Source: Fusobacteria bacterium ZRK30 (GTDB taxonomy: Bacteria; Fusobacteriota; Fusobacteriia; Fusobacteriales; Fusobacteriaceae). From it: DNA of 64,000 bases. The stretch is from positions 124,001-188,000 of the forward strand of contig CP102404.1 of NCBI GenBank assembly GCA_024628785.1. The letters are read 5' to 3'. The translations under genes were made by a program, and so were the position numbers. Positions 1 to 54,082 of this stretch are shown in pieces (within the stretch, counting starts at the first letter, position 1; each line of letters opens with the position of its first letter). Under the pieces are notes generated by a model. That model did no database searches, was not told where the DNA came from, and saw nothing but the letters and a program-made list of their open reading frames with translations.

Positions 1-210
1 AATGCAGTTATAGAAATCACCTTTATTTCTATTATAGGTATCCCAAATAATGTAGAAGCTTTAAAACGTTCTTTAGGCGAAGCTAAGCCGGCACACTTAC
101 CGATTAATTATACATTTAAATATCGTACCTGGGGGATGTTACTTCCTAAAACATGGGGATATTATATGCAATACACATGGGGTCAAGTCTTAAAGCAGGA
201 GGTTATATAG
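1..210 (+). CDS. Phage baseplate/tail protein, DUF2313 (YmfQ) type, C-terminal part
   Basis: This frame is open from the first base of the window to TAG at 208-210, so only the last 69 residues are visible. The stretch reading EALKRSLGEAKPAHLPINYT, followed by an aromatic FKYRTWG segment, matches the C-terminus of DUF2313/YmfQ proteins, which sit between the baseplate J-like protein and the tail fibre in contractile-tailed phages and PBSX-like elements. The next gene starts immediately after its stop codon, with the AGGAGG at 197-202 lying inside this gene, so the two are translationally coupled. Family call is from recognised motif and gene order; the N-terminus lies outside the window. Confidence 0.72.
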   Translation, partial: NAVIEITFISIIGIPNNVEALKRSLGEAKPAHLPINYTFKYRTWGMLLPKTWGYYMQYTWGQVLKQEVI

Positions 211-1014: not shown

Positions 1015-1051
1015 ATTTGTTTTGGTCAATAGATAAAAAGAGAGGTGAAAA

Positions 1052-1579
1052 ATGAAATACAATTTATTAAAAAAAGAAGCAGCTAACACATGGGAATTGG
1101 CCAAAGAAAAACATATAAAATCTGTTTCTTTGGATAAGAATAGAATCAATAGAAAATATGAAAAAGCATTCCCGTATGATTATGATCCGGAAGTTCATTT
1201 TGTATACGAAGGTAAACTAACAGGACCATATATAATTCAACCTGATTTTACTCTATATTTTTTAAATGATAGAGAGCAAATAGAAAAAGGATATAAAGCT
1301 CTTGGGATTGGTGAAATCCTAGAAGGGAATAAGATAAAAATTATTCCCTCTCCTGGAGAGTTTTATACCTGGAATACTAATACCTGGATCTATGATAAAC
1401 AAAGGGAGATAAATAGTATAAATAATAGGATTAAAGGAATTGAAACTGATTTAGAAAATAAACAGGCTAGATTAGATTCCAGAGAGAAACTAGGTATGAA
1501 AGTATCTAAACCAGACTCTGAAATAGTAAGACTATTACAGCTCCATGCTGATACTTCTCAAGAACTTACTTTAATCTAA
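1052..1579 (+). CDS. Probable tail fibre assembly-like protein
   Basis: 175 residues, start ATG preceded by GAGAGGTG. Position directly after the fibre gene and a central YTWNTNTWIYD segment (near residues 108-118) resemble the W-x-W/WVYD signature of tail fibre assembly chaperones, which fold and trimerise the fibre. The remaining C-terminal ~55 residues are predicted coiled coil (INSINNRIKGIETDLENKQA). No clear full-length family match is recognised, so the functional call rests on context and one motif. It is in the same orientation and close spacing (37 bp) as the fibre gene. Confidence 0.5.
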   Translation: MKYNLLKKEAANTWELAKEKHIKSVSLDKNRINRKYEKAFPYDYDPEVHFVYEGKLTGPYIIQPDFTLYFLNDREQIEKGYKALGIGEILEGNKIKIIPSPGEFYTWNTNTWIYDKQREINSINNRIKGIETDLENKQARLDSREKLGMKVSKPDSEIVRLLQLHADTSQELTLI

Positions 1580-1594
1580 ATTAGGAGGGATTAT

Positions 1595-1894
1595 TTGGAA
1601 TACAATATTACATTAGATTTAATAACCTATATTATAGTCTTAATAGCATTTGGAACCATAGGAAGTTGTTACCAGGCATATAAAGACCAGGGAACTACTA
1701 AGCCATTCTGGGCCAGGGTTATATGTGGGGCATTTGCAGGATCGGTTACAATGCTTGTTGTGTTTATATTAGGACTAGAAGGAACCCAGGCTTTTATTCA
1801 TTTTGGTATAGCAGCTCTTCTAGGCCTTCTATCTGAAAAAGGAGAAACACAGAGAATAGTAGATTTGATCTTTAACAGAGGAGGGAGAACATGA
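1595..1894 (+). CDS. Holin-like small membrane protein
   Basis: 99 residues starting at TTG (1595), chosen because TTAGGAGGGA sits 6-13 bases upstream and no ATG fits. Two or three hydrophobic segments (about residues 8-26, 45-63 and 66-80) with a positively charged tail (FNRGGRT) give a class II/III holin layout, similar to the LydA-like holin group. It overlaps the endolysin start by 4 bp (ATGA-type junction), the typical holin-lysin arrangement. The expected role is to make lesions in the inner membrane so the endolysin can reach peptidoglycan. Holin families are too divergent for a firm family name by eye. Confidence 0.6.
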   Translation: MEYNITLDLITYIIVLIAFGTIGSCYQAYKDQGTTKPFWARVICGAFAGSVTMLVVFILGLEGTQAFIHFGIAALLGLLSEKGETQRIVDLIFNRGGRT

Positions 1895-2265
1895 ATAAAA
1901 TATCGAGTAGAAGCATCAAAAATATCCAAGGAATAGATCCCAGATTACCTCTAATAGTTGGAATGGTATTAGCCAGAGGGAAGGTAGACCTGACTATTAC
2001 GTGTGGTTTAAGGAGCTTAGAGGACCAGCAAAAAGCATTTAAAAATGGGTTCAGTAAATTGGATGGAGTCAATAAGAAATCTAAACATCAAACAGGGAAA
2101 GCGATAGACTTTATTCCATATCCCTTTAATGGATGGGATGACATAGAAAGCTTTAAAAAGGTTGGTGAGGAGTTAAAATTAGTGGCCAATCATTTGGGAT
2201 TTAAATGTACTTACGGTGGTGACTGGAAGAATTTTAAAGATTATCCGCATTTCCAGCTGGATTAG
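1891..2265 (+). CDS. Phage endolysin, M15-type L,D-peptidase (VanY-like)
   Basis: 124 residues. The pattern SKHQTGKAIDFIPY (about residues 61-74) supplies the HxxxxxxD zinc ligands of peptidase family M15, and DYPHFQLD at the C-terminus supplies the third ligand His. Such short single-domain M15 proteins are phage endolysins that cut the peptide cross-links of peptidoglycan (L-Ala-D-Glu or D-Ala cleavage). No signal peptide is seen, consistent with holin-dependent export. It overlaps the upstream holin-like gene and is followed 8 bp later by another membrane protein, completing a lysis cassette. Catalytic residues all appear present. Confidence 0.85.
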   Translation: MNKISSRSIKNIQGIDPRLPLIVGMVLARGKVDLTITCGLRSLEDQQKAFKNGFSKLDGVNKKSKHQTGKAIDFIPYPFNGWDDIESFKKVGEELKLVANHLGFKCTYGGDWKNFKDYPHFQLD

Positions 2266-2273
2266 GAGGGGTC

Positions 2274-2735
2274 ATGAATAAAATTATAAATTTTTTCAAA
2301 GATAAAGGACTCCCGGCACTAGCCCAGGCAGTCATGGGGAACCCTGTAGGAGCATTAACAACTCTTACAGGGCTTACCGGATCATCTACTGAGACAGAAA
2401 TTTTAAAAACCTTACAGGGAGATCCCCAGCTGGTTTTGAAATTAAAAGAAAAGGAAAATGAATATGTAAAATTTATCTTAGATGATAAGAAAAATGCAAG
2501 AGAGATGAACTTTAAAATAAATGACTCCGATAATTCATCCTGGCTCCAAAAGAATATAAGTGCCCTGATTGCCCTTGTATGGGTGTCGTTTTGTATCTAC
2601 CTGTACTGGATAAGCCTAAAGGGAGAAGTAGGCAGTGACAAACAGATGAATAGCATGGTAGTCGGCTCTATAACTAATATCACCATGCTGATAATAGGTT
2701 TCTATTTCGGGAGTTCCGAAATTAAGAAAAAATAA
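2274..2735 (+). CDS. Holin-like protein, 3-TM phage/GTA holin type
   Basis: 153 residues, ATG preceded by AGGAGGGG. The soluble N-terminal half carries small-residue-rich segments and charged helices; the C-terminal half has two strong membrane helices (about residues 97-116 and 128-146) and ends with FYFGSSEIKKK. The 'FYFGSS...K' ending is typical of the GTA_holin_3TM family. It closes the lysis module and is followed by a terminator at 2801. Function as a second holin or a membrane-anchored lysis regulator is inferred from family and position. Confidence 0.62.
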   Translation: MNKIINFFKDKGLPALAQAVMGNPVGALTTLTGLTGSSTETEILKTLQGDPQLVLKLKEKENEYVKFILDDKKNAREMNFKINDSDNSSWLQKNISALIALVWVSFCIYLYWISLKGEVGSDKQMNSMVVGSITNITMLIIGFYFGSSEIKKK

Positions 2736-2800
2736 AATTTTTAGGAGGTCTAATTCAATAAGGGAATTATTCTTTAAGTATAAAAGGAGTAATTAAAAAA

Positions 2801-2824: not shown

Positions 2825-3176
2825 ACATTTTAGGTAATTCAACTCCGCCAATTCCAGAAAAAACTAAAGTTTCTCCTAACCTTTTTTTCAATTTTTCATT
2901 ATAAACCTTACTAAATAATGTCTTATTTTTTACATTAAGATCAACATCTTCGAATTTTTGATTACATAAATACTCAAAGAGGTATGTCCCTGAATAATCA
3001 AACATTATTTTTTTATTTATTTTCCCTAATAAAGTTACAGAAACTTTACAAGTTTTATCTTCGCTATTTAACCACATTTGAACATTAAGATCCATCTCCA
3101 TTTTTTTTGAAGGAATTTCATCTTCCCTATTAAACTTTTCATCCATTAAGCAAAATTTAGATATACTTGATTTCAT
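2823..3176 (-). CDS. Small uncharacterised protein, possible SecB-like fold
   Basis: 117 residues. It is not firmly recognised. The middle reads as alternating strands (VQMWLNSEDKTCKVSVTLLG, then IMFDYSGTYLFEY), and the C-terminus FSGIGGVELPKM resembles the 'G(I/F)PPLxLPxI' ending of SecB-like chaperones. SecB-like proteins occur outside Sec as stand-alone chaperones, including in toxin-antitoxin-chaperone systems and on mobile elements. It is the last gene of a minus-strand group with two small membrane proteins (3185-3914) beside a prophage lysis cassette, so it may be phage cargo. The SecB idea is inference from short motifs and needs a profile search; otherwise hypothetical. Confidence 0.4.
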   Translation of the reverse strand: MKSSISKFCLMDEKFNREDEIPSKKMEMDLNVQMWLNSEDKTCKVSVTLLGKINKKIMFDYSGTYLFEYLCNQKFEDVDLNVKNKTLFSKVYNEKLKKRLGETLVFSGIGGVELPKM

Positions 3177-11664: not shown

Positions 11665-13047
11665 TTAAACTTCCATCTCCACTTCATCGATATTTACTTT
11701 AACTTTATCAATGTCTTTAACTGGCTTTAATCTAGGAAGATTAAGATATATTGATGCAAATGCTGAGATAAAAACTAAGTGTGAATATGTAGAATATTTT
11801 ATAATCTCGAATGCTTCAAGAGTACCAATTGTCATAGCCGAAGATCCTGCTGCTGCCGCTGCAAGCATCATTCCGCCCCAAGGGACATTAGCCATGGTAG
11901 CTGTACCGAAAATATCTAAATATGAAGCTGTTCTTCTGGGGTCTATACCATATTTATTAGTTGTTTCCATAGCTATGGGAGCTGCTGTAACAATAGCTAC
12001 AGTACTGTTGGCAACAAAGATAGTAACTATCATAGTTAAAAGTGCTATACTTACCATTCCACCTTTTTTAGAAGCAATTCTAGATTCTAATTTTTCAACA
12101 ATCCAATGAATACCGCCATTATACTTTATCATCCCTATTATTCCACCAACAATTAAAACTATCATAGAAATTTTAGCCATTCCCATCATACCTTTTTGAA
12201 TAGTTTGAAGCAATGCAATAAGTTGTCCATATCCCTGGGGAGAAGTGAAAGATCCAAAATACATTCCAACTCCACCAGCAAGAACTATTCCTGATAATAA
12301 AACAAAGAATACATTTACTCCCATTAATGCCGATACCAACACTACTGCAAAGGGAAGAATTTGCAATAAATTATAACTTCCAGGTACAAAATCAAATGTT
12401 CTACCACTTGTTAGAACAGAAAATATAACCATAGTTAAAATAGCCGCAGGTAATATTATTAAAAAATTTACTTTGAATTTATCAGTCATCTTAACGCCAC
12501 ATAACCTAGTAGCCGCAATAGTAGTATCTGAAATAACAGACATATTATCTCCAAAGGCTGCTCCTCCCAATGCTGCCCCAACAGTCATAGCAACTGGAAG
12601 ATTTGTAGCCTCTGCTAAACCAACTGCAATTGGTGCCAACGCTACTACTGTCCCTACTGAAGTTCCCAGCGATAATGCGACAAAACACGCTATTAAAAAT
12701 ATTCCTGAAACCAATAAATTACTAGGTACAAATGTTAAAAAAAGGTTTACTACACTATTAACTGCACCTCCATCTCTTGCCACTGCAGAAAATGCTCCTG
12801 CTAATAAAAATATTACAATCATAATTATTGTATTAGGATTTGCAGCATTTCTAGCAAAAATATCAATTTTTTCCATAATAGGTTTATCCTTATTCATAAA
12901 AATAGAAATAAATGCAGCTATCATAAAAAATACGAGAGCATCTACAACCTTTGAACTTCCCAACACTATCCCAAATCCAAGTGTTAAAGCTAAAAATATT
13001 AAAATTGGTATTAATGCAAAAAAACTTGACTTCTTCTTAACCTCCAT
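11665..13047 (-). CDS. NhaC-family Na+/H+ (or Na+-coupled organic anion) antiporter
   Basis: 460 residues with ~12 membrane helices. Conserved NhaC signatures include LSLGTSVGTVVALAP (residues ~125-140), AALGGAAFGDNMSVISDTT (~158-176) and a C-terminal TASYLDIFGTATMANVPWGG. Family members exchange Na+ for H+ or for metabolites (for example malate/lactate in MleN), so here it may carry the operon's substrate or product. It sits between the PLP lyase and the TauE/SafE exporter in one operon. GGGGGAATATTTT precedes ATG. Substrate is not determinable from sequence. Confidence 0.85.
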   Translation of the reverse strand: MEVKKKSSFFALIPILIFLALTLGFGIVLGSSKVVDALVFFMIAAFISIFMNKDKPIMEKIDIFARNAANPNTIIMIVIFLLAGAFSAVARDGGAVNSVVNLFLTFVPSNLLVSGIFLIACFVALSLGTSVGTVVALAPIAVGLAEATNLPVAMTVGAALGGAAFGDNMSVISDTTIAATRLCGVKMTDKFKVNFLIILPAAILTMVIFSVLTSGRTFDFVPGSYNLLQILPFAVVLVSALMGVNVFFVLLSGIVLAGGVGMYFGSFTSPQGYGQLIALLQTIQKGMMGMAKISMIVLIVGGIIGMIKYNGGIHWIVEKLESRIASKKGGMVSIALLTMIVTIFVANSTVAIVTAAPIAMETTNKYGIDPRRTASYLDIFGTATMANVPWGGMMLAAAAAGSSAMTIGTLEAFEIIKYSTYSHLVFISAFASIYLNLPRLKPVKDIDKVKVNIDEVEMEV

Positions 13048-41554: not shown

Positions 41555-41870
41555 AACTATCCCGACTCTTTATAACTAACCTACCCTTCGGCTTCTACCT
41601 TCAATTTTTTTCTCCAGCTGACAGCATATTCATACTTTCTTCAAGCTCTAAAGATAGAGCTGAATCTAGTTTATCCTCCTCCTAATTTTATTTTTATAAA
41701 ATTTTATACTTTTTACTCTAGAAATATTGAATACTTACAATTTTTAGAGTATACTCAAAGTACAACAATATGGTATAAAATTCTGAATAGTACTGTCCAA
41801 GAAAACTGAAAATCTATTTTGGATATTCTTGAACTATCTATCCAAAGTTTAAAAAAGGGGGGGAGCTTCA
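41555..41870. other. Spacer without recognised gene
   Basis: 316 bp. Pyrimidine-rich plus strand followed by AT-rich sequence that should contain the promoter of the DUF2321 gene; nothing else seen. Confidence 0.35.
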
Positions 41871-42194
41871 ATGGAAAAATTAGTAAAAGTAAAAGTAAAA
41901 AATTTAATGTCTGCTATATGTGAAAAAGGACACCTTCAAACTTCTACACTTGAAAGAGTAGAGGATTTTTGTGGTGATCTATGTATCAAGTGTAATAGTA
42001 AAGTTTTAACTCACTGTACATGTGGCTCACCTATCAAAGGCGGTATCTTAGCTATAAATGCCAGACCTGATTTTACTAATGTTCGAGAACCGCGATATAT
42101 AGAGAGTGAAAAAGTCCCAAATTACTGCCACGACTGCGGTAAAGCCTATCCATGGGTTGAAAAATTTCTAGAAAAATATAAGAATATTTTATAG
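41871..42194 (+). CDS. DUF2321 zinc-binding protein
   Basis: 107 residues. Cysteine pairs C-x6-C-x2-C (EDFCGDLCIKC), HCTCGSPIKGG and YCHDCGKAYPW form at least two zinc-ribbon halves, and the order ICEKGHLQTSTLERVEDFCG matches the DUF2321 family of uncharacterised proteins. AAAAGGGGGGGAGC precedes ATG. Stand-alone; terminator at 42229. Function unknown. Confidence 0.75.
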   Translation: MEKLVKVKVKNLMSAICEKGHLQTSTLERVEDFCGDLCIKCNSKVLTHCTCGSPIKGGILAINARPDFTNVREPRYIESEKVPNYCHDCGKAYPWVEKFLEKYKNIL

Positions 42195-42226
42195 TTCTAA
42201 TCAAAAAACTTGATTATCACTGATCT

Positions 42227-42260
42227 TTTAAGAGTAGATATATTTCTACTCTTTTTTTTT
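42227..42260 (+). terminator. Terminator of the DUF2321 gene
   Basis: AAGAGTAGA TATATT TCTACTCTT followed by T9. Confidence 0.85.
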
Positions 42261-42349
42261 ATTTAAAATAATTTATATTACTACTAAGAAAGGAGCTTGC
42301 TAGAAAAGGTTGGAAATAGAAAATTATTGTATAAGGAAAGTAAAAAAAT

Positions 42350-42535
42350 TTAATGGGGAAGGTGCTCCTTCCAAAACTGAAAGGAGCACCTATGAAAAGA
42401 ATACAACTTAAGACGTATAAAATAAAAGTCTCTGCTCAGTGGATAATCAATAGTTTAATTACTAAAAATAAAAACACTTTTGACCGTATTCTATCCACTT
42501 GAATCAAGTTTATATTGAATTAAAATAAAAGTCAA
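42350..42535 (-). ncRNA. Candidate small RNA T1 with promoter and 3' hairpin
   Basis: Promoter TTGACT (42535-42530), 17-bp spacer, TAAACT (42512-42507). The predicted RNA starts near 42500 with AGTGGATA, which pairs with TATCCACT (42445-42438) to close the 5' domain. The 3' end is a perfect hairpin AGGTGCTCCTT ... AAGGAGCACCT (42391-42360) with U-rich sequence after it. About 150 nt, no start codon with a ribosome site. Confidence 0.55.
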
Positions 42536-42564
42536 TATAAATATTAATTTTTTTTAACGTTGAA

Positions 42565-42766
42565 AAAAAAGAATAAGATCTCTACAGAAATAGAGATCTC
42601 ATACGAATAATATATAAAAGACAATCAAATAAAAAAGTCTTTTTAGGTGGATTTAAAATTTTAAAAAAGCAATTTTGGTATTAACAACAATTTATTAAAT
42701 TTATTAGATAATATCTAATTTAAATCCACCTAAATTAAGTATATCTAACTTTTTTTCGAAAGTCAA
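42565..42766 (-). ncRNA. Candidate small RNA T2 with promoter, closing stem and terminator
   Basis: Promoter TTGACT (42766-42761), 17-bp spacer, TATACT (42743-42738), nearly consensus. RNA predicted from ~42731: its first bases TAGGTGGATTTAAA (42732-42719) pair perfectly with TTTAAATCCACCTA (42657-42644). A second hairpin GAGATCTCTA ... TAGAGATCT (42601-42577) followed by TTATTCTTTTTTTT is the terminator. About 165 nt, no reading frame. Confidence 0.6.
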
Positions 42767-42787
42767 ATATAACATATTAATCATCTA

Positions 42788-42969
42788 AAATAAAAAAATA
42801 GAGCCTCTAATTCTTAAATAACTAGAGGCTCAGAGGAAAAAATAAGTAAATTTACTGTCCGAAATAAATTTACCCTAATGAGCTATATACATTACAACTG
42901 GGATAAGCAATGTATACATTGGTATGCTCACTGTAGATTAATTTTACCTTAAAATAACACTAAAGTCAA
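42788..42969 (-). ncRNA. Candidate small RNA T3 with promoter and terminator
   Basis: Promoter TTGACT (42969-42964), 17-bp spacer, TAAAAT (42946-42941). RNA ~42934 to 42790. Internal pairings include AATGTATA with TATACATT and GTAAATTTA repeats around GTCCGAAATAA; terminator TAGAGGCTC complement GAGCCTCTA (42831-42801) then TATTTTTTTATTTT. It also contains a 14-codon frame MYTLLIPVVMYIAH (hydrophobic), without a convincing ribosome site. Confidence 0.6.
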
Positions 42970-43165
42970 CTAAAAAAAATAAAACATTGAAATTAAAGGG
43001 CTACACAAAGATAAAATAACATCTTTCTATATCTTTAAAAATATTGTAATAAAGTGGACCTCCTAAAACAAACCGCTATTGCAGTATTTCTATTAATATA
43101 TAAAAAGAGAAGTAGATTATAGCAGTCTTTTGGATTTTGAACTAATAAGGTTGAAATGATGATTT

Positions 43166-43295
43166 CCTATAAAAACAAAGAGTTCTCGTAAAATCAACGA
43201 GAACTCTTTGAGGAAAGAAACATACGGCATTAACATTTACTAGCTTAAAATATCAATACACTAGTATTAATACCTTAATAAATACTAAAAGTCAA
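43166..43295 (-). ncRNA. Candidate small RNA T4 with promoter and terminator
   Basis: Promoter TTGACT (43295-43290), 17-bp spacer, TATTAA (43272-43267). RNA ~43260 to 43168 (~93 nt). Terminator is a perfect 14-bp hairpin CAAAGAGTTCTCGT ... ACGAGAACTCTTTG (43210-43176) with TTTTTA. Terminator and following GGAAATCA are shared with T5. Confidence 0.6.
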
Positions 43296-43299
43296 CTTA

Positions 43300-44200
43300 A
43301 AAATAAAAAGAGGAATGAAGGAGATAACAGAATCTTAAAATATGGGACTTTTACAATAGATGACCTGTCTTTTTAAAAAATATCAGATACTATAGGCATA
43401 GCTATAGATCTTAAAGGGGTATAAAATCCACTACGATGATTTAAATATCTATAATGCAAGATACTGACACATTCCAAGGGGAACTGTTAAAAAGCAAATA
43501 TGGAGCTCCTACGAGCTCTTTCTATAAAATAAAAACAAGAAAAAATTTTAAACGAACGACAAAAAAAGATTCTTAGAAATCCGAATAAAAATGAAACAAA
43601 GATAAAAATATCTCATATAAGAAGACTGAAATACTTAGCAGGTCTCACAACTAAAATTTTAAAATTTAAAGGTACGATGATTTCTATCTAATAGCTTCCA
43701 TTACCAAGGAATATATCAGTAGTTCAGATATGAAGAGGAGGTTAGACTTTTAATGGAGTTTAAGTTTTTAAGGACTTGAAAGCTATCCTCTATAAGTTAT
43801 AAGATGATACAACAAGGGTAGAGTTTAGTGATGTTCCTAGAACCATATCTAAACCTTTAAAAGTTTTAATGGATCATAGGAATACAGATGCCTAATATAA
43901 AGGAGAATGTTATATGCCTCATTTTACCTCATGCATCTGGTACAGGCTCTATTTTATGGAGCTATTACAGTGGAAAGAGCCGGTAAGATGAAATATATTA
44001 TCTTTCCAGATGAAACTAAGATTAAATATAAGTTTGAGACACACCTGTTGGAAGTTAATTGTTTGGGAGATATTTATAAAAGATCTTAATAATGTAAATA
44101 TATCTTCTAACAATATAGTGATGATAACAGATCGCTTAATTATCAATTCAAAAGCTATTTTTTCTCACAGAAACTACACTAAATACAGATGCAGAAAATA
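43300..44200 (+). pseudogene. Heavily decayed gene(s)
   Basis: Protein-like pieces appear in changing frames: KYGTFTIDDLSF, TIGIAIDLKG, IHYDDLNIYNARY, HIPRGTVKKQIWSSYEL, later DLKAILYKL, DDTTRVEFSDVPRTISKPLK, VLMDHRNTDA, and KMKYIIFPDETKIKYKFETH. Stops and frame changes occur every 20-40 codons. No family recognised; probably one or two former accessory genes. A ribosome-site-like AAAGGAGAATGTTATATG near 43900 starts only a short frame. Confidence 0.4.
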
Positions 44201-44227
44201 AACCAACAACAATAACAGTATAGTAAT

Positions 44228-44270
44228 TTTTATATAATAAAAGCCTTAACTTCCCAAGTCAAGGCTTTTA
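44228..44270 (-). terminator. Hairpin of unknown origin
   Basis: AAAAGCCTTAACTT CCC AAGTCAAGGCTTTT (44240-44271 region), near-perfect stem with a T-rich tail on the minus strand. No intact gene ends here; could belong to the 44416 frame. Confidence 0.55.
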
Positions 44271-44415
44271 AATGGTAACTAATATGAACATCAAAAAAAC
44301 TTCTTATTCAAAGTATTCCCATAAATTAAAAAAAAAAGCAAATTTAAGACTCATATTTTGTAAATAACGAAATCGAAGTGATAAAATGATAGGAAAGTCA
44401 GATGGGGGATTTCAA

Positions 44416-44664
44416 TTATTTTATCAAAGTTATATCAATATTTTTTATTGCATCAACAATTGCATTTTCTGAATGTTTAGAAATATTCGCATAGTCATCT
44501 ATATGGCTATAACCACTAGATAGGACTAAGTTTCCACTTGAAGTGGAATAATAAAGGCTAGCTTTTATAACATTAATATGTGTCATAATCTGGGTATCAA
44601 AACCGATATCTAGAGTATATTCTTCAGTTAATTTTCTTAATGCTTGATTTATTTGAATTTTAAT
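44416..44664 (-). CDS. Possible small protein with ATT start, or 5'-damaged gene
   Basis: An 82-residue frame that reads as convincing protein (QALRKLTEEYTLDIGFDTQI, MTHINVIKASLYYSTSSGNL, SGYSHIDDYANISKHSENAI, VDAIKNIDITLIK). It has no ATG, GTG or TTG near the 5' end; the upstream stop is followed by AAGGGGGG, an excellent ribosome site, and then ATT at 44662-44664 at 6-7 bases distance. Either ATT is the true start (rare but known, as in infC) or the start codon has mutated. The hairpin at 44228-44270 is downstream. No family recognised. Confidence 0.4.
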   Translation of the reverse strand: MKIQINQALRKLTEEYTLDIGFDTQIMTHINVIKASLYYSTSSGNLVLSSGYSHIDDYANISKHSENAIVDAIKNIDITLIK

Positions 44665-44921
44665 ACTAAGCCCCCCTTAGATTATCCCCATCTAATAAGA
44701 GTATAGCACATAAAATAGGGACTTAAAAAAGGTTCACTAAAATTAGGAAAGAATACTTCCTAACGTTTCACGGCAACATTTTCCATTGTCCTTCCTAGTT
44801 TTAATTTTTTTGAGAAGATGTATATGATAATTAATTCTAGCAGATAGAAAAATCAGCTGAAGATTTATTAATTTTAGAGGGAAGAGTTAGAGAGTAAATT
44901 ATCTAGGTGATAGTGATTTCC

Positions 44922-45049
44922 TGTAAAAAAAAGTAAGAAGTTCCCGTAAAGTCAACGAGAACTTCTTACTAAAGATGTGATATTAATATTTGGTTTGAAG
45001 AAATATTAATACTATTATTTTTATTACTATAAAAAATACAAAAAGTCAA
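44922..45049 (-). ncRNA. Candidate small RNA T5, paralogue of T4
   Basis: Promoter TTGACT (45049-45044), 17-bp spacer, TAATAA (45026-45021). RNA ~45014 to 44922 (~93 nt). Terminator AGTAAGAAGTTCTCGT ... ACGGGAACTTCTTACT (44970-44932) shares the GTTCTCGTTGA(C/T)TTTACG core with T4 and both are followed by TTTTTxAxAGGAAATCA. Same length as T4. Confidence 0.6.
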
Positions 45050-45420: not shown

Positions 45421-45456
45421 AAAAAGGAGTCATCAATAAATTGATGACTCCTTTTT
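45421..45456 (-). terminator. Terminator of the grd locus
   Basis: GGAGTCATCAAT AA ATTGATGACTCC (45426-45451) flanked by A6 and T5. On the minus strand TTTTTTTGG follows the stem; ends grdC-grdD transcription. Confidence 0.85.
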
Positions 45457-45499: not shown

Positions 45500-45530
45500 T
45501 TAGTCATCAATAATTTGATGACTTCTCTTT
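45500..45530. repeat. Degenerate duplicate of the grd terminator
   Basis: AGTCATCAA TAA TTGATGACT (45502-45522) repeats the core of the terminator 75 bp away and both are followed by CTTTAGRTTAAA. Its T-run is lost. Confidence 0.6.
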
Positions 45531-45540
45531 AGATTAAATA

Positions 45541-46710
45541 TTAGCAGCTTGTTTTTTCTACTGCGATATATTCATTTTCTCCTAAGATAACAATTGCTTT
45601 CTCTTTGTTAGTTTCATTTACTAAGATGATTGGTCCTGTACAACCCATTCCTGCTTCTGCATAGATCCCATTTCTCATAAGTTCTAGTGCTGCATCATCT
45701 AAGTCCATGATATCTATCCCTGATACTTGCGCTGTTACTACTTCTTTTTCAGGCTTTACAAATTCTTCTACTGGTTTTTTAGGTGCTTCAACAAAACCAG
45801 CTAAGATCTCTTCGTATCCTGCTTTTTTTATCATCTCATATTCTTTGCTTACTATTGCAGCAAGATCATTTTTCCCTAATAGTGCAGCATATTTTATTGC
45901 TCCTTCTACTACAGGTACTCCTGATGCTCTAGATAAGATTAATATAGTTCTCTTCATATCAAATGATACTCCTGGACCATATCCATATCCGTTTGCTTCA
46001 TAACTTCCACCTGTTGAGTAAGAAGAAAACATCTTCATAAGAATATTTCCAGTTAAACTATCTGTTACCATTACATCTGATGATCCCATTAAAAGGTCGT
46101 TTCCTCTCATGATTGTTCCACCATCTGCTCTTCTAGATTCACCAAAGTTAATTGCATAACCGTTGTCAGCTAATTTTCTAAGAGATCTTTCTACAGCTCT
46201 TGAGCTGTCTACGTTTAAGATTCCAACACTAGGATTAGCTATTCCAATTGCTTTGGCTGTTGCTATTCCATAAAGTGAGTTTTTAAACATAGCTTCTGTT
46301 CTGTTAGTAGCTGATGTTCCTGTTGTAGTTCCTATTAACATGTCATTTCCAAAAGCAGGTGTTACTACTCTACCTATTGTAGAAGTACCGATTGGGAAAC
46401 TGTAATGCATAGTTACAGCTGAATTGATCTCTTTTGAATCGATTAATTCTTCCATTCTTTTATGCGCTTCTTCCTCAGTGTTAGCTTCTACAACTCTTAA
46501 AGCTGTCTCTACCTTAGGTCCAATTAAAACTACATCAAAGTCACCACTTAAAGCTGCTTTTTCTGCACCTTTAACGATGTTTTCTACTCCATGCTCACTA
46601 CCTATTGTAGTTATTCCTACACATATTCTCTTACCAAACGACCCTGTTTCCATGGCATTGGCTATATCTAAAAAAGTTTCACCTATCATTTGTTTAATAT
46701 CTAAAGACAT
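45541..46710 (-). CDS. grdD: Glycine/betaine reductase protein C, GrdD subunit
   Basis: 389 residues. PlsX-like acyltransferase subunit: FGKRICVGITTIGSEHGVEN (residues ~25-44), FPIGTSTIGRVVTPAFGNDM and TTTGTSATNRTEAMFKNSLY (~105-150), and the reactive Cys near the C-terminus in YAEAGMGCTGPIILV (~355-369). With GrdC it accepts the carboxymethyl-selenide from protein A as an enzyme-bound acetyl thioester and releases acetyl phosphate. AAGGGGGGATTTCTT precedes ATG; 13 bp after grdC. Intact. Confidence 0.94.
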   Translation of the reverse strand: MSLDIKQMIGETFLDIANAMETGSFGKRICVGITTIGSEHGVENIVKGAEKAALSGDFDVVLIGPKVETALRVVEANTEEEAHKRMEELIDSKEINSAVTMHYSFPIGTSTIGRVVTPAFGNDMLIGTTTGTSATNRTEAMFKNSLYGIATAKAIGIANPSVGILNVDSSRAVERSLRKLADNGYAINFGESRRADGGTIMRGNDLLMGSSDVMVTDSLTGNILMKMFSSYSTGGSYEANGYGYGPGVSFDMKRTILILSRASGVPVVEGAIKYAALLGKNDLAAIVSKEYEMIKKAGYEEILAGFVEAPKKPVEEFVKPEKEVVTAQVSGIDIMDLDDAALELMRNGIYAEAGMGCTGPIILVNETNKEKAIVILGENEYIAVEKTSC

Positions 46711-46723
46711 AAGAAATCCCCCC

Positions 46724-48258
46724 TTAACCTAAGAATTGAGAGGCAAAGTTTTTCATAGCTTCTGCAATCATTGTATTAATTTCATCTTTAGAAACTGATC
46801 CTGCTTCCTCTGTAACACCTGTGTTTCTTTCTACCATGATAGATACACCATCGAATAAGTTAGTCATTCTTCCTAAGAATAATGATCCTTTTCCTACTAC
46901 CATTACTCTGTTTAAGTCACCTTTAGTTAACTCATCCATAGCAAATCCTAAGTAAGGTACTCCTGAAGGGATATGACCTTGTGTAGGTGCCCATCCAACC
47001 ATTCCGTTATTTACAACGAAATCTTTCATAGCTTTCTTTTCGATATGTCCTTTCTTAACTCCACAAGCTCCGATCATCTTGTAGTTTCCTTCTGGTACAT
47101 CTCCTGCTCCTGCTGGTTTTGTAACATCTGGGTTTTGCATCTCTACTGAGTACTTATCTACATCTGTAATCTTTAATCCAGCTTTTTCTAATGGCTCGAT
47201 TACTAATGATGAGATAACTGCTTGAGGTGAAGATCCTGTTCCTACAGTATGTCTACCTACGAAATCAGTGTTGATTACCGGGCTAACTCCGTCATTTTCA
47301 GAGATTAAGATAGCGAATGCTCCTAATGTATCCTCTAAGATAGGTAAGTCTTTTTTAACATGGTCTTTACCGTTCATTCCTAACTTAGCTGTAGCTCCAC
47401 CTGCAACAACTACAACGTTCTTGTATGTTCCAGCTTTTACTAATGATGCTGCGTTGATCAATGAATGAGTAGGTGCTGCACAGAATCCTCTAAGGTCTGA
47501 TCCAGTTGCATTTACTGCTCCGATGCTTCGGCGATAGCTTTAGCGAAGTTTCCTCCACCTCTTTGGTTCATATCTCCACAAGCTTCTTCTGAACATTCGA
47601 TTACATAGTCGATAGTTGTAGGATCGATGTTGTTTCTTGCAATTAAGTTTTTAAATGCTAAGATTCCAGATGCTTTTACAACTAAGTTTTCAAATATTAC
47701 ATGTGAACTTAAGTTAGAGTCTACATCATGGGCTCTCTTTACACATCCAACTAATTTATCTTCATGGTATAACCCTTCTGCTCCCTCTTCATTTACTAAA
47801 GCTTCGATTACAGAGAATTCATGACCTTTATTTAATTGAGCTTCGTCAGCTTCTGAATAGAACTCATAGTTTCTATATGCTTCTACTGCGTCAGCTAAGA
47901 ATTTTTCTTCTAATAATACTAAGTCGAAAACGTCAGCTAATTTAACCATTACGATAAATTCTTTTTGAGCTAAGATCTCTCCAAATTTACCTTTGTTTGA
48001 AGAACCTTCAATATTTTTACCTACGAATGGCATTCCAACTTCTTTTAATTTTTCAGGAGTAAGGTTTCCGATGTAAGTTTGGTTAGGTCCGTAGTTTACT
48101 ACTTCTTCATAAGTTCTGTAGCTGTCTCTGATATTTTTTAAATATTCAGAATCCGGGTTAGTATGTTTTTCAACTGTTTGAGTAGTTCCATTGTGTAAGA
48201 TCATGTCTGGAGTATGCACTAAACAATATGCTGCTCCTTTTAAAACTGCAAAATTCAT
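46724..48258 (-). pseudogene. grdC: Glycine/betaine reductase protein C, GrdC subunit, interrupted by one frameshift
   Basis: Two frames make one ~511-residue GrdC. The 5' frame (48258-47512) runs MNFAVLKGAAYCLVHTPDMI to GGGNFAKAIAEAS and then EQ-stop; the 3' frame resumes GAVNATGSDLRGFCAAPTHS LINAASLVKAG and ends NFASQFLG. Codons GCA TC- GGA GCA show that one base is missing near 47518-47520 (minus-strand GCATCGGAGCAG). GrdC is FabH-like and forms the acetyl-thioester complex with GrdD. Because all other subunits are intact, a sequencing or assembly error in a G-run is at least as likely as a real mutation. GGAGGAATAAAAG precedes ATG. Confidence 0.9.
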
Positions 48259-48684
48259 CTTTTATTCCTCCGATTTTATTATATATTTATTTATTTATTT
48301 TTAAAGTTATAAAAAATAAGGGAAAGAGACAATAACTCTTCCCCTTATTTAGGTTTAATTATTTTGTTTTTTGTCTTCTATATTTTTCAATTAGAAGATT
48401 TATTGATTTTAATAATCTAAGAAAGTTGTTATTATTTTTATAAGATTTTTAAATTTAAATTTGCTACCGATAGTTCTTACCTCAATTTTTATTAATAAGG
48501 AAGAATTATTTTATTACTGTTATATAGGCTCATCCTGAGCCATGTGTTCAATGGATTTTTTAAGAATTATTTTTGATTAAAGATTTGTTGTGTGCCTCGC
48601 ATAAGACACGGTTTTTGAATATGATTTCTTAGTTTTTTAGTTATTTTTTGTTGCTGGTTTAGTTATTACAAGTTTTGCGAGAAA
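48259..48684 (-). promoter_or_regulatory. 426-bp leader between grdA and grdC with a terminator-like hairpin
   Basis: AATAAGGGAAAGAG ... CTCTTCCCCTTATT (48318-48352) is a strong terminator-type hairpin followed, in minus direction, by TTTTTTATAAC and 60 bp later the grdC ATG. GGCTCA GGA TGAGCC (~48531-48546) is another hairpin. It separates grdA from grdCD, so the latter need read-through or their own promoter. Confidence 0.6.
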
Positions 48685-49155
48685 TTAAAGGTATTTACAA
48701 CCTTCTCCTCTGATTTCGTTCATTTCTTCTACGATTTCTTCTACTTCTAATACCATTTCCATCATTCCTACTTGCTCTTCAAATACGTCTGCATCTACAG
48801 AACCTTTGAATTGATCTTCTAATACGTGGAATACTGATAATCCTAACGCTTCGTTAGCTAGTACTCCTGAGAATGTAGGGTCTCCCATTGTTACTGTTTC
48901 TGCAGCTAATCCAGATGCCTCTGCTTCTGCTGCTCCTAATATAACTACTAAGTTTTCTGCTCCATATTCAGTTGCGAAATCTTTAATTCTTTTTTGATTC
49001 TCTAAATCCATTGCTCCTGCTGCCGTTCAGACAAAACATTCTGTAGAAGCAAATATTACCTCTACTGAAGGGATTGTTTCTGCACAAGCTTTTATAGCTT
49101 CTCCAGGTACACCGTCTCTATCTCCTACTATTATTAACTTTTTATTTTCGAACAT
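48685..49155 (-). CDS. grdA: Glycine/betaine/sarcosine reductase selenoprotein A (Sec at residue 43)
   Basis: 156 residues with in-frame TGA (49027-49029) decoded as selenocysteine. N-terminal [20 protein letters not shown], then ASTECFVU(43)[10 protein letters not shown]: the CxxU redox motif and AGAMDLENQ are invariant in GrdA. After the Sec the frame continues to YL and stops, with the expected [20 protein letters not shown] near the end. Protein A carries the carboxymethyl group between protein B and C. ORF finders will report only the part after the TGA. TTAGGAGGAAATTAATT precedes ATG; 130 bp after trxA. Confidence 0.97.
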
Positions 49156-49285
49156 AATTAATTTCCTCCTAATATTTTCTAATACTTTTTTTAATGAATA
49201 CATTAGTCTTATAAAAATAACATTTCTTTGATTCCTAAATTATTTATATAATAATTATCAATCTGTAAAGATCGATATATTATTG

Positions 49286-49606
49286 TTACTTGATGTTTTC
49301 TGCTAACATATTTTCAATGTTTTTAGCTGTTGCATCGTCTTTTGTTAATTCTGCTACTTTTTCTCCACCTTTATATAAAGTGATTGTAGGTAATCCTAAT
49401 ACTTTTTGCTTTATCGCCATTCTTCTTGCTTTACTTGTGTTTAATTTTACGAATTTAGCTTTATCAGCATTTTTTTCAGCTATTACTTCTAATTCAGGTA
49501 ATAACGCTTTACACGGTACACACCCGTCACTATAATAATCTACTAATACATAACCTTCTGCATTTAGTACTTCTTCTTCAAATGTTCCCTTATCTACTAC
49601 TAACAT
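49286..49606 (-). CDS. trxA: Thioredoxin of the reductase system (GCVPC active site)
   Basis: 106 residues. Active site [16 protein letters not shown] (residues ~26-41): the usual W-C-G-P-C is G-C-V-P-C, exactly the variant described for thioredoxins of glycine-reductase systems such as in Eubacterium acidaminophilum. Cis-Pro loop [20 protein letters not shown] (~69-88) is normal. It passes electrons from TrxB to selenoprotein A/protein B. 13 bp after trxB. AAGGAGGATCAATTT precedes ATG. Confidence 0.95.
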
Positions 49607-49619
49607 AAATTGATCCTCC

Positions 49620-50561
49620 TTAAAATTTTTCTTCCATATATTTTTCAGCTAACGTTGCTGCGATTGCTCCATCAGCAGTTGCTGTTACTACTTGTCTAAG
49701 TGCTTTAGGTCTGATATCTCCTGCTGCAAATACTCCTTCTACATTTGTTCTCATTTCGTCATCAGTTTTGATATATCCCCAGTCATCCATTTCGATATGA
49801 CCTTTGAATGTATCTGAATGTGGTACATAACCAACAAATGCGAATAATCCAAATGTTCCATCTTCTTCATCTGCATGGAATTCTGTTAATTCTCCAGTTT
49901 TTAAGTTTCTGAATACTGCTGTTTCTAATATTCCGTCACCTTTTAATTCTTCAACTGTTGAATCCCACATAAATTCTAACTTGTCGTTTTTAAATGCTTT
50001 CTCTTGAATAGATTTAGCTGCTCTTAATTCATCTCTTCTATGTACTATAGTTACTTTTCTAGCAAATTTAGTTAGGTACATTGCTTCTTCAACTGCTGTG
50101 TCTCCTCCACCGATTACGAATACTTCGAAATCTTCAAAGAAGTCAGCATCACATGTAGCACAGTATGAAACTCCCTTACCAGTAAATTCAGCTTCTCCAG
50201 GACAACCCATCTTTCTAGGTGTAGCTCCAGTTGCTATAATAACTGATTTAGCTTTATATTCTTCTTTTTCCCCTTTAACAATTTTGATGTCTCCAGAAAA
50301 ATCTACATCTATTACATCGTCAGATTTGATCTCTGCACCGAATTCTACAACTTGTTCTACCATTCTAGCGATTAGAGATGGTCCTGTAGCTTCTCTTACA
50401 GATCCAGGATAGTTTGCTACTTCATGAGTTATAACAATCTGTCCTCCTGTTTTACTCTTTTCCAATACTAATGTAGATAATTTTGATCTTCCTGCATATA
50501 GAGCCGATGATAATCCTGCTGGCCCTGCTCCTACTACTATAAGGTCGTATATTTTTGACAT
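49620..50561 (-). CDS. trxB: Thioredoxin reductase
   Basis: 313 residues. FAD site [20 protein letters not shown] (residues ~9-28), redox [12 protein letters not shown] (CATC, ~136-147), NAD(P)H site [20 protein letters not shown] (~154-173), and C-terminal [29 protein letters not shown] preference: HRRDELRA points to NADPH. Forms with TrxA the electron supply for the grd system. GGGAGGATACA precedes ATG. Confidence 0.95.
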
Positions 50562-51083
50562 TGTATCCTCCCGTTCATTCTATTCCATTTTTAATATTAT
50601 ATCAATGTTTTTTTAATTTATTTGTTCTATTTCTATTCTCTCTGATTGTTCTGCCTCTTCTTTGTTCTATTTTTCCAGATTTTCTTTAACTATTGGATTA
50701 TTACTTAACTACTAAACACCAAAAAAATCACTTTTTCCACTTTGAATATCCTTTTCTTGTTTCTTGTATACTCATTGTATTTCAATCTTATTCCAAAAGT
50801 ATACAACAGAACAAAAAAAATTCCAAAATATTTTTGAAATTATTTTATAAAAATAAAACAATCAAAGTTTTTATAAACTTTAACCTTTCAAAAAAATTTT
50901 CCAAAAAGTTCTATGTCTACTAAGTAAACTACTATCTCAAGGTTCTTAGATTATGTAATAATCTTTATCTCAAAGTTCTTAATTTACACTGTAAATTTTT
51001 AGATACTTTGGTGATACTCTTTATCGAGTAGAAGTCTTGGTGATACTTCTACGGGTATATTTTTCTAAGCAATAAAAACAATT
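50562..51083 (-). other. Long leader of trxB with iterated hairpins
   Basis: 522 bp without a gene. Two direct repeats ATCTCAARGTTCTTA (50934-50948, 50967-50981) and two GGTGATAC words (near 51010 and 51039) lie between hairpins AGATTAT..ATAATCT, AATTTAC..GTAAATT and GTAGAAGT..ACTTCTAC. Could be an mRNA processing or regulatory leader; see findings. Confidence 0.45.
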
Positions 51084-51122
51084 TACTTTTCAATTAATAG
51101 GACATTGCCTATTAATTGAAAG
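51084..51122 (-). terminator. Hairpin after the BCCT gene
   Basis: CTTTTCAATTAATAGG ... CCTATTAATTGAAAG, ~14-bp stem downstream of the transporter stop; T-run is weak on the minus strand. Confidence 0.65.
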
Positions 51123-51137
51123 ATAAATTTTTATTTT

Positions 51138-52709
51138 TTATGCTTCTTTTATTTGCTCTATTTCTACTTCTTCTGTCTCCGCCACTTCTTCTTTGTTCCA
51201 ATTCTTCTCAGCTTTTAATGATCTCATCAATGAAATCATAGCAAAGATCATTATGAATACAAACGGGAAGGCGGCGACCAGAGATATTGTCTGTAACATT
51301 TTAAGTCCATTTGCACTTGCTAACATTAGAGCTAATGCTAATCCAGATTGAATTCCACCCCAAAGAAGTTTTTTTCCAACCGGTGGATTTAAATCCCCTT
51401 TAGAACTTAACATACCTAATACAAACGTAGCTGCATCTGCCGAAGTGATAAAGAATGTACATAATAAAACTACTGCGATTACAGATACTGCCATTCCCAT
51501 TGGATACTTACTTAAAACTACAAATAGTGCTGTAGGAGTAGAAACTATAGCTTCTTTAGCAAGATCTAATCCTTGTGCTAATCCCATACTTCCAAATACT
51601 GAAAACCAGATAAATGAAGCTAATGTAGGAGCTAATAATACTCCTGTAATAAATTCTCTGATAGTTCTTCCTTTAGATATTCTAGCAATAAAACTTCCTA
51701 CAAATGGAGCCCATGCTATCCACCATGCCCAGTAGAATACTGTCCAAGTTCCGTACCAAGAGTCATTTGTAAATGTTCCCATCTCGAAACTGGCACCTAC
51801 AAATCCACCCATATAGTTCCCTAAAGATTCTACAAATACTTTTAATATTAATAATGTAGGTCCCACTAAGAAACAAACAACTAACATTAAAAGGATTACT
51901 CCTACGTTTAAGTTAGATATAAATTTCATACCTTTATCCACTCCAGCCATTGCTGATAACATAAAGATAGCAGTTATTATTCCTACAATTAAAATTTGAA
52001 CTAATTTTGTTTCAGGTACTCCGAATAAATAGTTTAATCCTGCATTTATTTGGTAAGTTCCAAGTCCTAAAGATGTAGCTACTCCTGCAACAGTTGCAAA
52101 AATTGCAAATACATCTATCATCTTCCCAAACCATGATTTAACAGCTTTTTCTCCCACAATTGGAATGAATACACTACTTACAAGAGCTGGCTTACCTTTT
52201 CTAAATTGCATATAAGCCATAGCTAAGGCTAATACTGAATAGTTAGCCCATGGATGAAGACCCCAGTGCATAAATGAATGCTGCATAGCAAAAGCTGCTG
52301 CCCTAGGTGTTCCTCCCTCAATCCCTATAATTGGATTAACATAGAAATTCATAGGTTCTGCTGCTCCCCAGAATACTAATCCTATACCCATTCCTGCTGA
52401 AAAGAGCATAGCAAACCATGATATTAGAGTATATTCTGGTTTAGAATTGTCAGGACCTAATTTTATCGATCCATATTTACTGAATGCTAAGTATGCACAA
52501 AATGCCACAAATGATGACATTGAGATAGTATATAACCATCCGAAATTATTCACAAGATAACCAAAAGTTGCATTTCCTGCCTTTTCAAAACTAGCAGGTA
52601 AAACTAGCCCCCATAATACAATGGCTAAAGTTAGACCTATAGATATATAAAATGTCGCATCACTTTTTTTTATATTAGTTTCTTTAATTACACCTGTATC
52701 CGCTTTCAT
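51138..52709 (-). CDS. BCCT family glycine betaine transporter
   Basis: 523 residues, 12 membrane helices. BCCT motifs: FGYLVNNFGWLYTISMSSFV near the N-terminus, SAGMGIGLVFWGAAEPMNFY (residues ~112-131), WTVFYWAWWIAWAPFVGSF (~325-343, the Trp box) and ISKGRTIREFITGVLLAPTL. The Trp prism in the fourth and eighth helices favours betaine-like quaternary amines. It lies 60 bp downstream of betaine-type grdH, which assigns the locus to betaine rather than sarcosine. AGAAGGGGGATTT precedes ATG; C-terminal tail is acidic. Confidence 0.93.
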   Translation of the reverse strand: MKADTGVIKETNIKKSDATFYISIGLTLAIVLWGLVLPASFEKAGNATFGYLVNNFGWLYTISMSSFVAFCAYLAFSKYGSIKLGPDNSKPEYTLISWFAMLFSAGMGIGLVFWGAAEPMNFYVNPIIGIEGGTPRAAAFAMQHSFMHWGLHPWANYSVLALAMAYMQFRKGKPALVSSVFIPIVGEKAVKSWFGKMIDVFAIFATVAGVATSLGLGTYQINAGLNYLFGVPETKLVQILIVGIITAIFMLSAMAGVDKGMKFISNLNVGVILLMLVVCFLVGPTLLILKVFVESLGNYMGGFVGASFEMGTFTNDSWYGTWTVFYWAWWIAWAPFVGSFIARISKGRTIREFITGVLLAPTLASFIWFSVFGSMGLAQGLDLAKEAIVSTPTALFVVLSKYPMGMAVSVIAVVLLCTFFITSADAATFVLGMLSSKGDLNPPVGKKLLWGGIQSGLALALMLASANGLKMLQTISLVAAFPFVFIMIFAMISLMRSLKAEKNWNKEEVAETEEVEIEQIKEA

Positions 52710-52736
52710 AAATCCCCCTTCTATCGATTAAATAGA

Positions 52737-52768
52737 TTAATAGGGGAGCATACTTGCTCCCCTATGAA
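52737..52768 (-). terminator. Hairpin between grdH and the BCCT gene
   Basis: ATAGGGGAGCA TACT TGCTCCCCTAT (52739-52764) perfect stem without a long T-run on the minus strand; likely partial termination or mRNA stabilisation. Confidence 0.65.
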
Positions 52769-54082
52769 TTAAAACTTAACTTCAAATACTGTTTGATCTT
52801 CAATGTCAGTAGCAAGAGCGTCTAATGCCACTCCAACTCTATGATATCTTAACTTCCATTGTTCTTCTTTAGAAGTATTAGGATCTCCTAGTGGGTAAGG
52901 AATTGAAATTGTAGGAACTATCTTATTGGCACCTACTGTTTTCGCAACCGGTACTAAGTTTGCCATTTGTACAATTGGGAAACCAGCTTTTTCTATTTCT
53001 TTTACCATCGTTGTTCCACAACGAGTACAAGTACCTCATGTAGAAGTCATGATAACGGCGTCAACACCATGTTCTTTTAAGAATGGTACCATTTCTTCAG
53101 CCATTCTAGATGCTTCTGCTTCTGTAGTTCCAGTTCCAACTGTAGTATAGAAATGTGTATCTAAACTTCCAATTTTCCCCTCAGTCTCATATGCTCTCAA
53201 TGCATCTAAAGGTACACATACGTTAGGATCTGCATCTGCTGCTGCTGGATCATAACCTGCATGGATAGTTTTGAATACTCCAGCTTCTAATCTTGGCATT
53301 TCACTTACATCATACATTCCCCATCTTGTAGCTGATGCAGATTGAATTCTATCTGGATTTGCTACTGGTACTATTCCACCTGTAGTAACTATTGCTATTT
53401 TTGAAGTTGATAAGTCTTTAACAGCTGGTGCTATCTCAACTCTATCACTTTTTGGAATAGGTAACTCAGTTACATATTCTTCTCCAGCTAATTTTTTAAG
53501 AAGCATTTTAACTCCTCTAACTGCTGCTGGTTCCATTGTAAAGTCAATTACTTGATGTCTGATTCCTCTTACGTAGAATCCTTCTTCTTCAGCTGTTCCA
53601 ATTTTTTCTCCAGCTAAAATTTTGTCTGCATAAGCAGCCATTTTCTTAGTGTCTTTTCTCATTGCAGCGGCACTTCTACCACCTGGGAAAATAACAACTT
53701 CTTTTTTAAACATGTTTACTCCTGGATTTTCAACATGCATAGATGAAATTACAGGAACTCCAAATTTTTCTTTAACAGCTTTACAGATTACTCCACAAGC
53801 GTTTCCGTATCTTCCTGCTTGGAAAGATGGTCCTGCGAAGAAGATATCAAATTCTTTATCTTCTAAGAATGCTAAAATTCTTTCAACTGCTTCATCTTGA
53901 TTAGAACCCATGAAGTTATCTCCACAAATTACTGTATGAGTTACTTCTGCATTTTTTAGTGCTGCGTCTAACGCTAGTGAAGGACCTACTAATCCTTCTT
54001 TAATTTCTGGAGCATGATCGGCTTTTTCTTCCCCACCAATTCCAGCGAAAAATTGATTTATATATAAAATTGCTTTTTTCAT
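52769..54082 (-). CDS. grdH: Betaine (or glycine/sarcosine) reductase protein B selenoprotein subunit, Sec at residue 349
   Basis: 437 residues with in-frame TGA (53036-53038) read as selenocysteine: DAVIMTSTU(349)GTCTRCG TTMVKE, the U-x2-C-x2-C segment of GrdB/GrdF/GrdH. Downstream of the TGA is a hairpin CGTTGT GGA ACAACG (53023-53009), in the position of a bacterial SECIS element. Protein B binds the substrate amine via GrdI's pyruvoyl group and passes a carboxymethyl group to GrdA. The neighbour BCCT transporter argues for betaine. Standard gene finders split it into two frames. AAGGAGGATTAATCAGT precedes ATG. Confidence 0.95.
53009..53038 (-). promoter_or_regulatory. Sec codon and SECIS-like hairpin of grdH
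   Basis: TGA at 53036-53038 followed after 12 bases by the perfect hairpin CGTTGT/ACAACG with GGA loop; loop G is about 18 nt from the TGA, as in bacterial SECIS. Confidence 0.7.

What the first reader, a model, noticed from the sequence alone, without database searches (positions are those of the whole stretch)
42350..45049. Array of five promoter-terminator units in a gene desert: a probable small-RNA locus
Between 42.2 and 45.5 kb there is no convincing intact gene with a normal start, yet five minus-strand units each have TTGACT, an exactly 17-bp spacer, an AT-rich -10, ~90-165 bp of non-coding sequence and a strong terminator hairpin. Promoters (minus strand) are at 42535, 42766, 42969, 43295 and 45049. 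T1 and T2 begin with a sequence that pairs with a site near their 3' domain. Seen: the boxes and hairpins. Inferred: that they are small RNA genes. Such clustered independent sRNAs with a common promoter design are unusual.
Basis: partly seen in the sequence, partly recalled or inferred. Interest (0 to 1): 0.8.

Follow-up and report, generated by a model that had tools for sequence, protein, structure and literature searches.

The report
Small-RNA genes outliving a dead prophage
The "gene desert" is the wreck of an integrated phage in a Fusobacteriaceae bacterium: the phage's protein genes have rotted away, but its set of small, folded RNA genes, most with their own promoter and stop signal, is largely intact, which suggests the host may still use them.

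Summary
On the minus strand, TTGACT-N17-TA... promoters lead into 90-165-nt hairpin RNAs. Four of the five units pass a strict promoter+terminator scan, against none in 1000 shuffles and none elsewhere in the window. The fifth, U1, has a hairpin but no adjacent T-run.

Window 41.6-44.4 kb is a collapsed prophage, colinear with a ~44-kb contractile-tail prophage in a same-genus genome. In intact prophages the units lie between phage genes, opposite in strand to the structural genes. They are RNA families absent from Rfam. U4/U5 (20 sequences) and U3 (5 sequences) show strong compensatory pair changes, and G-U wobbles fix the strand. A Propionigenium maris prophage carries comparable, unrelated units in the same gene gap.

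In the wreck the RNA units are 89% identical to the relative's copies. The phage-gene relic is 81%, gapped and full of stops. Units are over-retained in several relics.

Best reading: prophage "RNA morons", probably trans-acting regulators made during lysogeny. Expression and targets are untested.

The parts
42507..42535 (-). U1 promoter, TTGACT-17-TAAACT
   Evidence: kept in G007 at 83% identity with the same spacing
42352..42500 (-). U1 RNA; 3' hairpin 42360-42391 without an adjacent T-run, 3' end uncertain
   Evidence: 88% identical to the G007 copy
42738..42766 (-). U2 promoter, TTGACT-17-TATACT
42571..42731 (-). U2 RNA with 16-bp closing arms (42719-42734 / 42642-42657) and terminator 42573-42602
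   Evidence: (z -7.4)
42941..42969 (-). U3 promoter, TTGACT-17-TAAAAT
   Evidence: 93% identical in G007
42801..42934 (-). U3 RNA: three hairpins, CCCAG loop, single-stranded UUCCUC, terminator 42801-42831
   Evidence: 5 copies in 3 genomes, 11 of 44 pairs with two-sided changes
43267..43295 (-). U4 promoter, TTGACT-17-TATTAA
43173..43260 (-). U4 RNA (same family as U5): two hairpins, terminator 43176-43210 with conserved GUUGAYUWUAC loop
   Evidence: 20-sequence family, 14 of 22 pairs with two-sided changes
45021..45049 (-). U5 promoter, TTGACT-17-TAATAA
44928..45014 (-). U5 RNA, terminator 44932-44970
   Evidence: same family as U4; 93-96% identical copies in G005 and G007
44236..44346 (-). 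E3: decayed sixth unit, -35 box lost, terminator about 44239-44269 kept
   Evidence: similar to units in G007, G000 prophage 1, G002 and G005
43526..44193 (+). dead phage gene relic (baseplate assembly protein and the end of the gene before it), stops in all frames
   Evidence: 74-76% identical to five intact copies, 44-54 gaps; intact protein hits phrog_6142, baseplate assembly
43310..43393 (+). fragment of the next phage tail gene
   Evidence: 83% identical to G007 prophage
41624..42285 (+). left part of the prophage remnant, including a DUF2321 gene at 41871-42194
   Evidence: 83-84% identical to G007 prophage 49.6-52.9 kb; Pfam PF10083

Best explanation
The array is a set of prophage-borne small RNA genes ('RNA morons') left in a collapsed prophage. 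Units are self-contained: a housekeeping-type promoter, a strongly folded RNA and (except U1) an intrinsic terminator. In intact prophages they sit between phage genes on the opposite strand, where they could be transcribed while lytic genes are silent. The most likely action is as trans-acting regulators: unpaired pyrimidine- or C-rich stretches (the CCCAG loop of U3 and of part of the U4/U5 family, UUCCUC before the U3 terminator) would pair with host or competing-phage mRNAs near ribosome-binding sites. After the phage died the host kept RNA units while protein genes decayed. Shown by computation: anatomy, structural conservation, strand, prophage origin, over-retention. Inferred: transcription during lysogeny, pairing mechanism, benefit to the host.
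For: Strict units 4 against 0 in 1000 shuffles. Covariation in two families with shuffle and slide controls. Wobble asymmetry 30:4 and 28:4. Fold z-scores -5 to -8. Colinear remnant of a G007 prophage. Units at fixed phage sites, opposite strand, also in viral contigs and, without sequence similarity, in Propionigenium maris. Unit identity 88.6% against 81.3% in the gene relic and 77.1% in spacers. Over-retention of units in relics. C-rich seeds are used by Fusobacterium sRNAs (PMC11005410).
Against: No expression data. Target search on 171 start regions gave nothing above shuffled seeds. The CCCAG loop is in only 6 of 20 U4/U5-family members. U1 lacks a proper terminator. Retention p-values rest on unit borders chosen after inspection, on relics that may not be independent, and on a search that favours conserved pieces. 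Recombination with a live phage could also have refreshed the units.
Confidence: 0.66

Rival explanations
1. The RNAs are antisense RNAs against the phage family's own lytic transcripts. Made in the lysogen on the opposite strand, they pair with intergenic parts of late and replication mRNAs of the resident or an incoming related phage, holding lysogeny or giving superinfection immunity; relics are kept as immunity.
For: Units lie opposite the structural and replication genes in intact prophages. A lysogeny antisense RNA to a tailspike gene gives superinfection exclusion in phage BTP1 (STnc6030, PMC12197685).
Against: Units cover only intergenic spacers, not start regions. U3-type units sit between host genes in two species. 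Structure is conserved by compensatory change while sequence drifts, which antisense pairing alone would not need.
Confidence: 0.2
2. Units were live in the phage, and their survival in the window is chance: a recent wreck whose random deletions happened to spare them. They may still be transcribed but do nothing for the host.
For: The wreck is still recognisable; E3 has already lost its -35 box; a few coding pieces survive too.
Against: Lower divergence and fewer gaps in units than in the gene relic (p 4e-4 and 1.5e-4); overlap 811 bp against 88 expected (p 0.0008) and the same trend in four other relics.
Confidence: 0.2
3. The units are not RNA genes: they are chance promoter and hairpin matches, or small peptide genes, in AT-rich decaying DNA.
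For: The region is a wreck, and generic promoter-like sites are no more frequent than in shuffles.
Against: Compensatory changes, wobble asymmetry, frame-breaking length differences, no ORF in the RNAs; 0 of 1000 shuffles with any strict unit.
Confidence: 0.03

Closest known systems
Prophage 'moron-site' sRNAs of E. coli O157 (AgvB, AsxR and relatives; PMC4104026)
   Same: Several short sRNA genes at conserved insertion sites of related prophages, in related but not identical groups, with terminator hairpins.
   Different: Hfq-bound and shown to be expressed; act as anti-sRNAs; convergent pairs near the PR' promoter of lambdoid phages. Here the sites are a tail-gene gap and a replication-gene leader in Fusobacteriaceae phages, with no sequence match (Rfam scan).
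Pas sRNAs of pathogenic E. coli prophages (PMC13192938)
   Same: Horizontally spread, structured, next to phage capsid or tail genes, diverged after integration.
   Different: Mostly in intact prophages; no tandem array of several families; sequence unrelated.
svsR (PMC12803456) and STnc6030 (reviewed in PMC12197685)
   Same: Prophage RNAs that change phage susceptibility, a plausible benefit here.
   Different: Single RNAs, one at the 3' end of cI and one antisense to a tailspike gene; no array.
FoxI and FoxJ sRNAs of Fusobacterium nucleatum (PMC11005410)
   Same: Same phylum, Hfq- and ProQ-independent, cytosine-stretch seeds, in FoxJ within a hairpin loop, as in U3.
   Different: Chromosomal, sigma-E dependent; the units here have TTGACT-17-TA... 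promoters.

Membership tests
Independently transcribed bacterial small RNA genes | own promoter and intrinsic terminator around a non-coding RNA | tested here: met
   4 of 5 units by a strict scan; U1 lacks the T-run
Independently transcribed bacterial small RNA genes | conserved RNA structure with compensatory changes | tested here: met
   U4/U5 and U3 families; U1 and U2 have two genomes only
Independently transcribed bacterial small RNA genes | transcript detected | not testable with these tools
   no RNA data at hand
Prophage-encoded sRNAs (moron type) | gene lies inside a prophage or its remnant | tested here: met
   colinearity with G007 prophage; same units in intact prophages and viral contigs
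Prophage-encoded sRNAs (moron type) | expressed while lytic genes are repressed | not testable with these tools
   only inferred from strand and promoters
AgvB, AsxR, Esr41, STnc100 and other Rfam families | match to the covariance model | tested here: not met
   no Rfam match at gathering score; weak hits are implausible families
FoxI/FoxJ-like sRNAs | cytosine-rich unpaired seed | tested here: inconclusive
   invariant CCCAG loop in U3 and 6 of 20 U4/U5 members; no target shown
FoxI/FoxJ-like sRNAs | sigma-E-dependent promoter | not tested
   promoters fit TTGACT-17-TA...; the Fusobacterium sigma-E motif was not scanned

The most novel reading that the evidence does not exclude
Phages of this group carry a modular set of sRNA genes that the bacteria domesticate: prophage wrecks are pruned down to their RNA (and small-protein) units, so the genus builds up sRNA islands from successive dead phages, acting as RNA-based immunity or as host regulators.
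Probability: 0.3. Interest if true: 0.8.

Novelty: new variant of a known kind. Interest (0 to 1): 0.58.

Why it matters
It gives at least two, probably three or more, undescribed structured RNA families in phages of an under-studied phylum, Fusobacteriota, of which F. nucleatum lacks Hfq and ProQ (PMC11005410). It is also a natural experiment on which phage genes a host keeps: RNA units survived where protein genes decayed. If confirmed, prophage wrecks are a source of new bacterial sRNAs, and their role in host regulation or phage immunity becomes directly testable.

Tried and rejected
Rfam: no match. Phage and plasmid DNA collections: no match. Small peptide genes: no ORF in the RNAs, and copy lengths break frame. 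Transposable or MITE-like repeats: no shared inverted ends seen, and copies sit at homologous phage positions. Leaders or riboswitches: no gene follows the RNAs. Target prediction by duplex energy on 171 start regions: no signal above shuffled seeds. A covariance model for U1/U2 was not built, because the five-sequence alignment was poor. The further strict TTGACT hit at 44262 lies inside the E3 terminator and was not counted as a unit.

Full report
Observation. Generic promoter-like hits in 41.5-46.5 kb are no more frequent than in shuffles (23 against 28.2+/-4.9), while hairpin-terminators are (9 against 1.2+/-1.0). With a strict unit definition (TTGACT, N17, TA..., then a hairpin with a T-run within about 236 nt) the minus strand of 42.3-45.1 kb has 4 units. 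The plus strand has none, the rest of the window has none on either strand, and 1000 dinucleotide shuffles have none. U1 fails only on the T-run after its hairpin. Predicted RNAs fold far better than shuffles (z about -5 to -8, against -0.2+/-1.2 for background stretches). For U2, U3 and U5 this holds after removing the terminator; for U1 and U4 it is weak without it (z -1.6 and -2.2).

Context. BLAST against the own genome and 60 relatives showed that the desert shares pieces with prophages. In G007, same genus, the same glycine-reductase genes are followed by a large prophage (terminase, sheath, tape measure, baseplate genes). Window 41.6-44.4 kb is colinear with 9-53 kb of that locus but keeps only about 2.5 kb of 44 kb. 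It includes a dead baseplate gene (43526-44193, stops in every frame). The genus is probably Psychrilyobacter; this is inference only (named relatives found: Propionigenium maris and Fusobacteriaceae bacterium UBA2433).

The RNA families. U4 and U5 are one family. In intact prophages it occupies the gap between tail-tube and tail-chaperone genes, in one to three tandem copies, opposite in strand (the 'tube' gene itself is labelled head closure by PHROGs). A covariance model of the RNA alone, without promoter, finds 13 confident loci, all in the genus: the 12 it was built from and one new copy (G007 C2), which has TTGACT-N17-TAATAA in front. Weak hits elsewhere look like chance. Viral contigs add further members. 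On 20 sequences aligned without reference to structure, 95.4% of cells pair and 14 of 22 pairs show two-sided changes; none of 500 shuffles reaches either value, and slid controls pair 36-52%. The structure was predicted from the same alignment, so this favours it somewhat. U3 is a second family: five copies in three genomes, three hairpins, 11 of 44 pairs with two-sided changes. Two of these copies, each with another unit beside it, lie at an orthologous place between host genes in G000 and G007. G-U pairs outnumber A-C mismatches 30:4 and 28:4, as expected if the minus strand is the RNA. U1, U2 and a further G007 unit (U2') share a plan, a 5' GTGGAT-type arm pairing far downstream before the 3' hairpin, but this rests on two genomes.

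Beyond the genus. In the Propionigenium maris prophage the same gap holds two promoter-hairpin-terminator units on the opposite strand with no sequence similarity, and a viral contig with a 69%-identical tube protein (L145) holds similar units. These two were judged by eye and by folding, not by a model. Other phages have a short gap and no unit, for example G000 prophage 2, L141 and L144. The gap looks like an insertion site for small RNA genes.

Retention. Against G007, RNAs and promoters of U1-U3 are 88.6% identical (491/554), the gene relic 81.3% (542/667 ungapped) and spacers 77.1% (182/236); Fisher p 4e-4 and 7e-5. Gap columns are 11/565 against 45/712, p 1.5e-4. Intact prophages are 87-90% identical to each other over that gene region, so the relic is decayed, not just divergent. 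Randomly placing the retained blocks on the G007 prophage gives 88 bp of overlap with units; 811 bp is observed (p 0.0008). Relics in G005, G002 (two) and the host-gene locus give p 0.02, 0.10, 0.02 and 0.036, about 1e-5 combined if independent, which I cannot prove. Unit borders were set after seeing the prophage, and sequence search favours conserved pieces, so these p-values are indicative. Re-supply by recombination with a live phage is not excluded.

Mechanism. Prophage sRNAs next to tail genes or at moron sites are known in E. coli (Pas, PMC13192938; AgvB and AsxR, PMC4104026), and some change phage susceptibility (svsR, PMC12803456; STnc6030, PMC12197685). Fusobacterium nucleatum FoxI and FoxJ pair through cytosine stretches, FoxJ's in a hairpin loop, in a species without Hfq or ProQ (PMC11005410). 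U3 has an invariant CCCAG in a loop and an invariant UUCCUC single strand before its terminator, so trans-acting pairing is my best guess. A small target search was negative. Antisense action on lytic mRNAs of related phages is the main rival.

Verdict. Real, non-trivial small RNA genes of prophage origin: new RNA families of a known kind of element, in an unusual array that has outlived its phage. Expression and function are untested.

Noticed in passing
window 44234-44262 (-); also L065:17067, L067:10468, L069:10663, L070:7396, L072:1059: The E-type terminator hairpin doubles as a promoter-like element: TTGACT in its stem-loop, 17 bp, then TATTAT or TACTAT in its T-rich tail; kept in several phages. 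It would fire antisense into the baseplate gene.
   Followed up: partly
L060:2524-2763 and 2915-3136; L058:7230-7451 and 11946-12167; L118:14076-14273: Small proteins (65-79 aa) of a 'YIDxxTxxIHxxxC...NGCxxC' type recur in the prophages on the same strand as the RNA units and are also left in relics; no Pfam match. They look like protein morons beside the RNA ones.
   Followed up: partly
window 44387-44729: A stretch with a 56-aa ORF (44416-44586, -) is 94% identical in G007 beside U5, better kept than the phage relic; function unknown.
   Followed up: no
L064:9034-11330 and the matching part of G000 prophage 1 (L060): A 2.3-kb IS element (Mu-type transposase domain plus ATPase) is 99.7% identical between prophage 1 and the locus beside the U3-type host array, indicating recent movement.
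   Followed up: no
window 45421-45456 and 45502-45523: Two near-identical hairpins, 74 bp apart, at the 3' end of the glycine-reductase genes: a tandem terminator.
   Followed up: no
window 45541-54082: Glycine/betaine reductase cluster with a selenocysteine SECIS_4 element at 52998-53035.
   Followed up: no
window 1-2785: The window starts in the tail end of another prophage of the same kind, 86% identical to G007's over 1001-1594.
   Followed up: no
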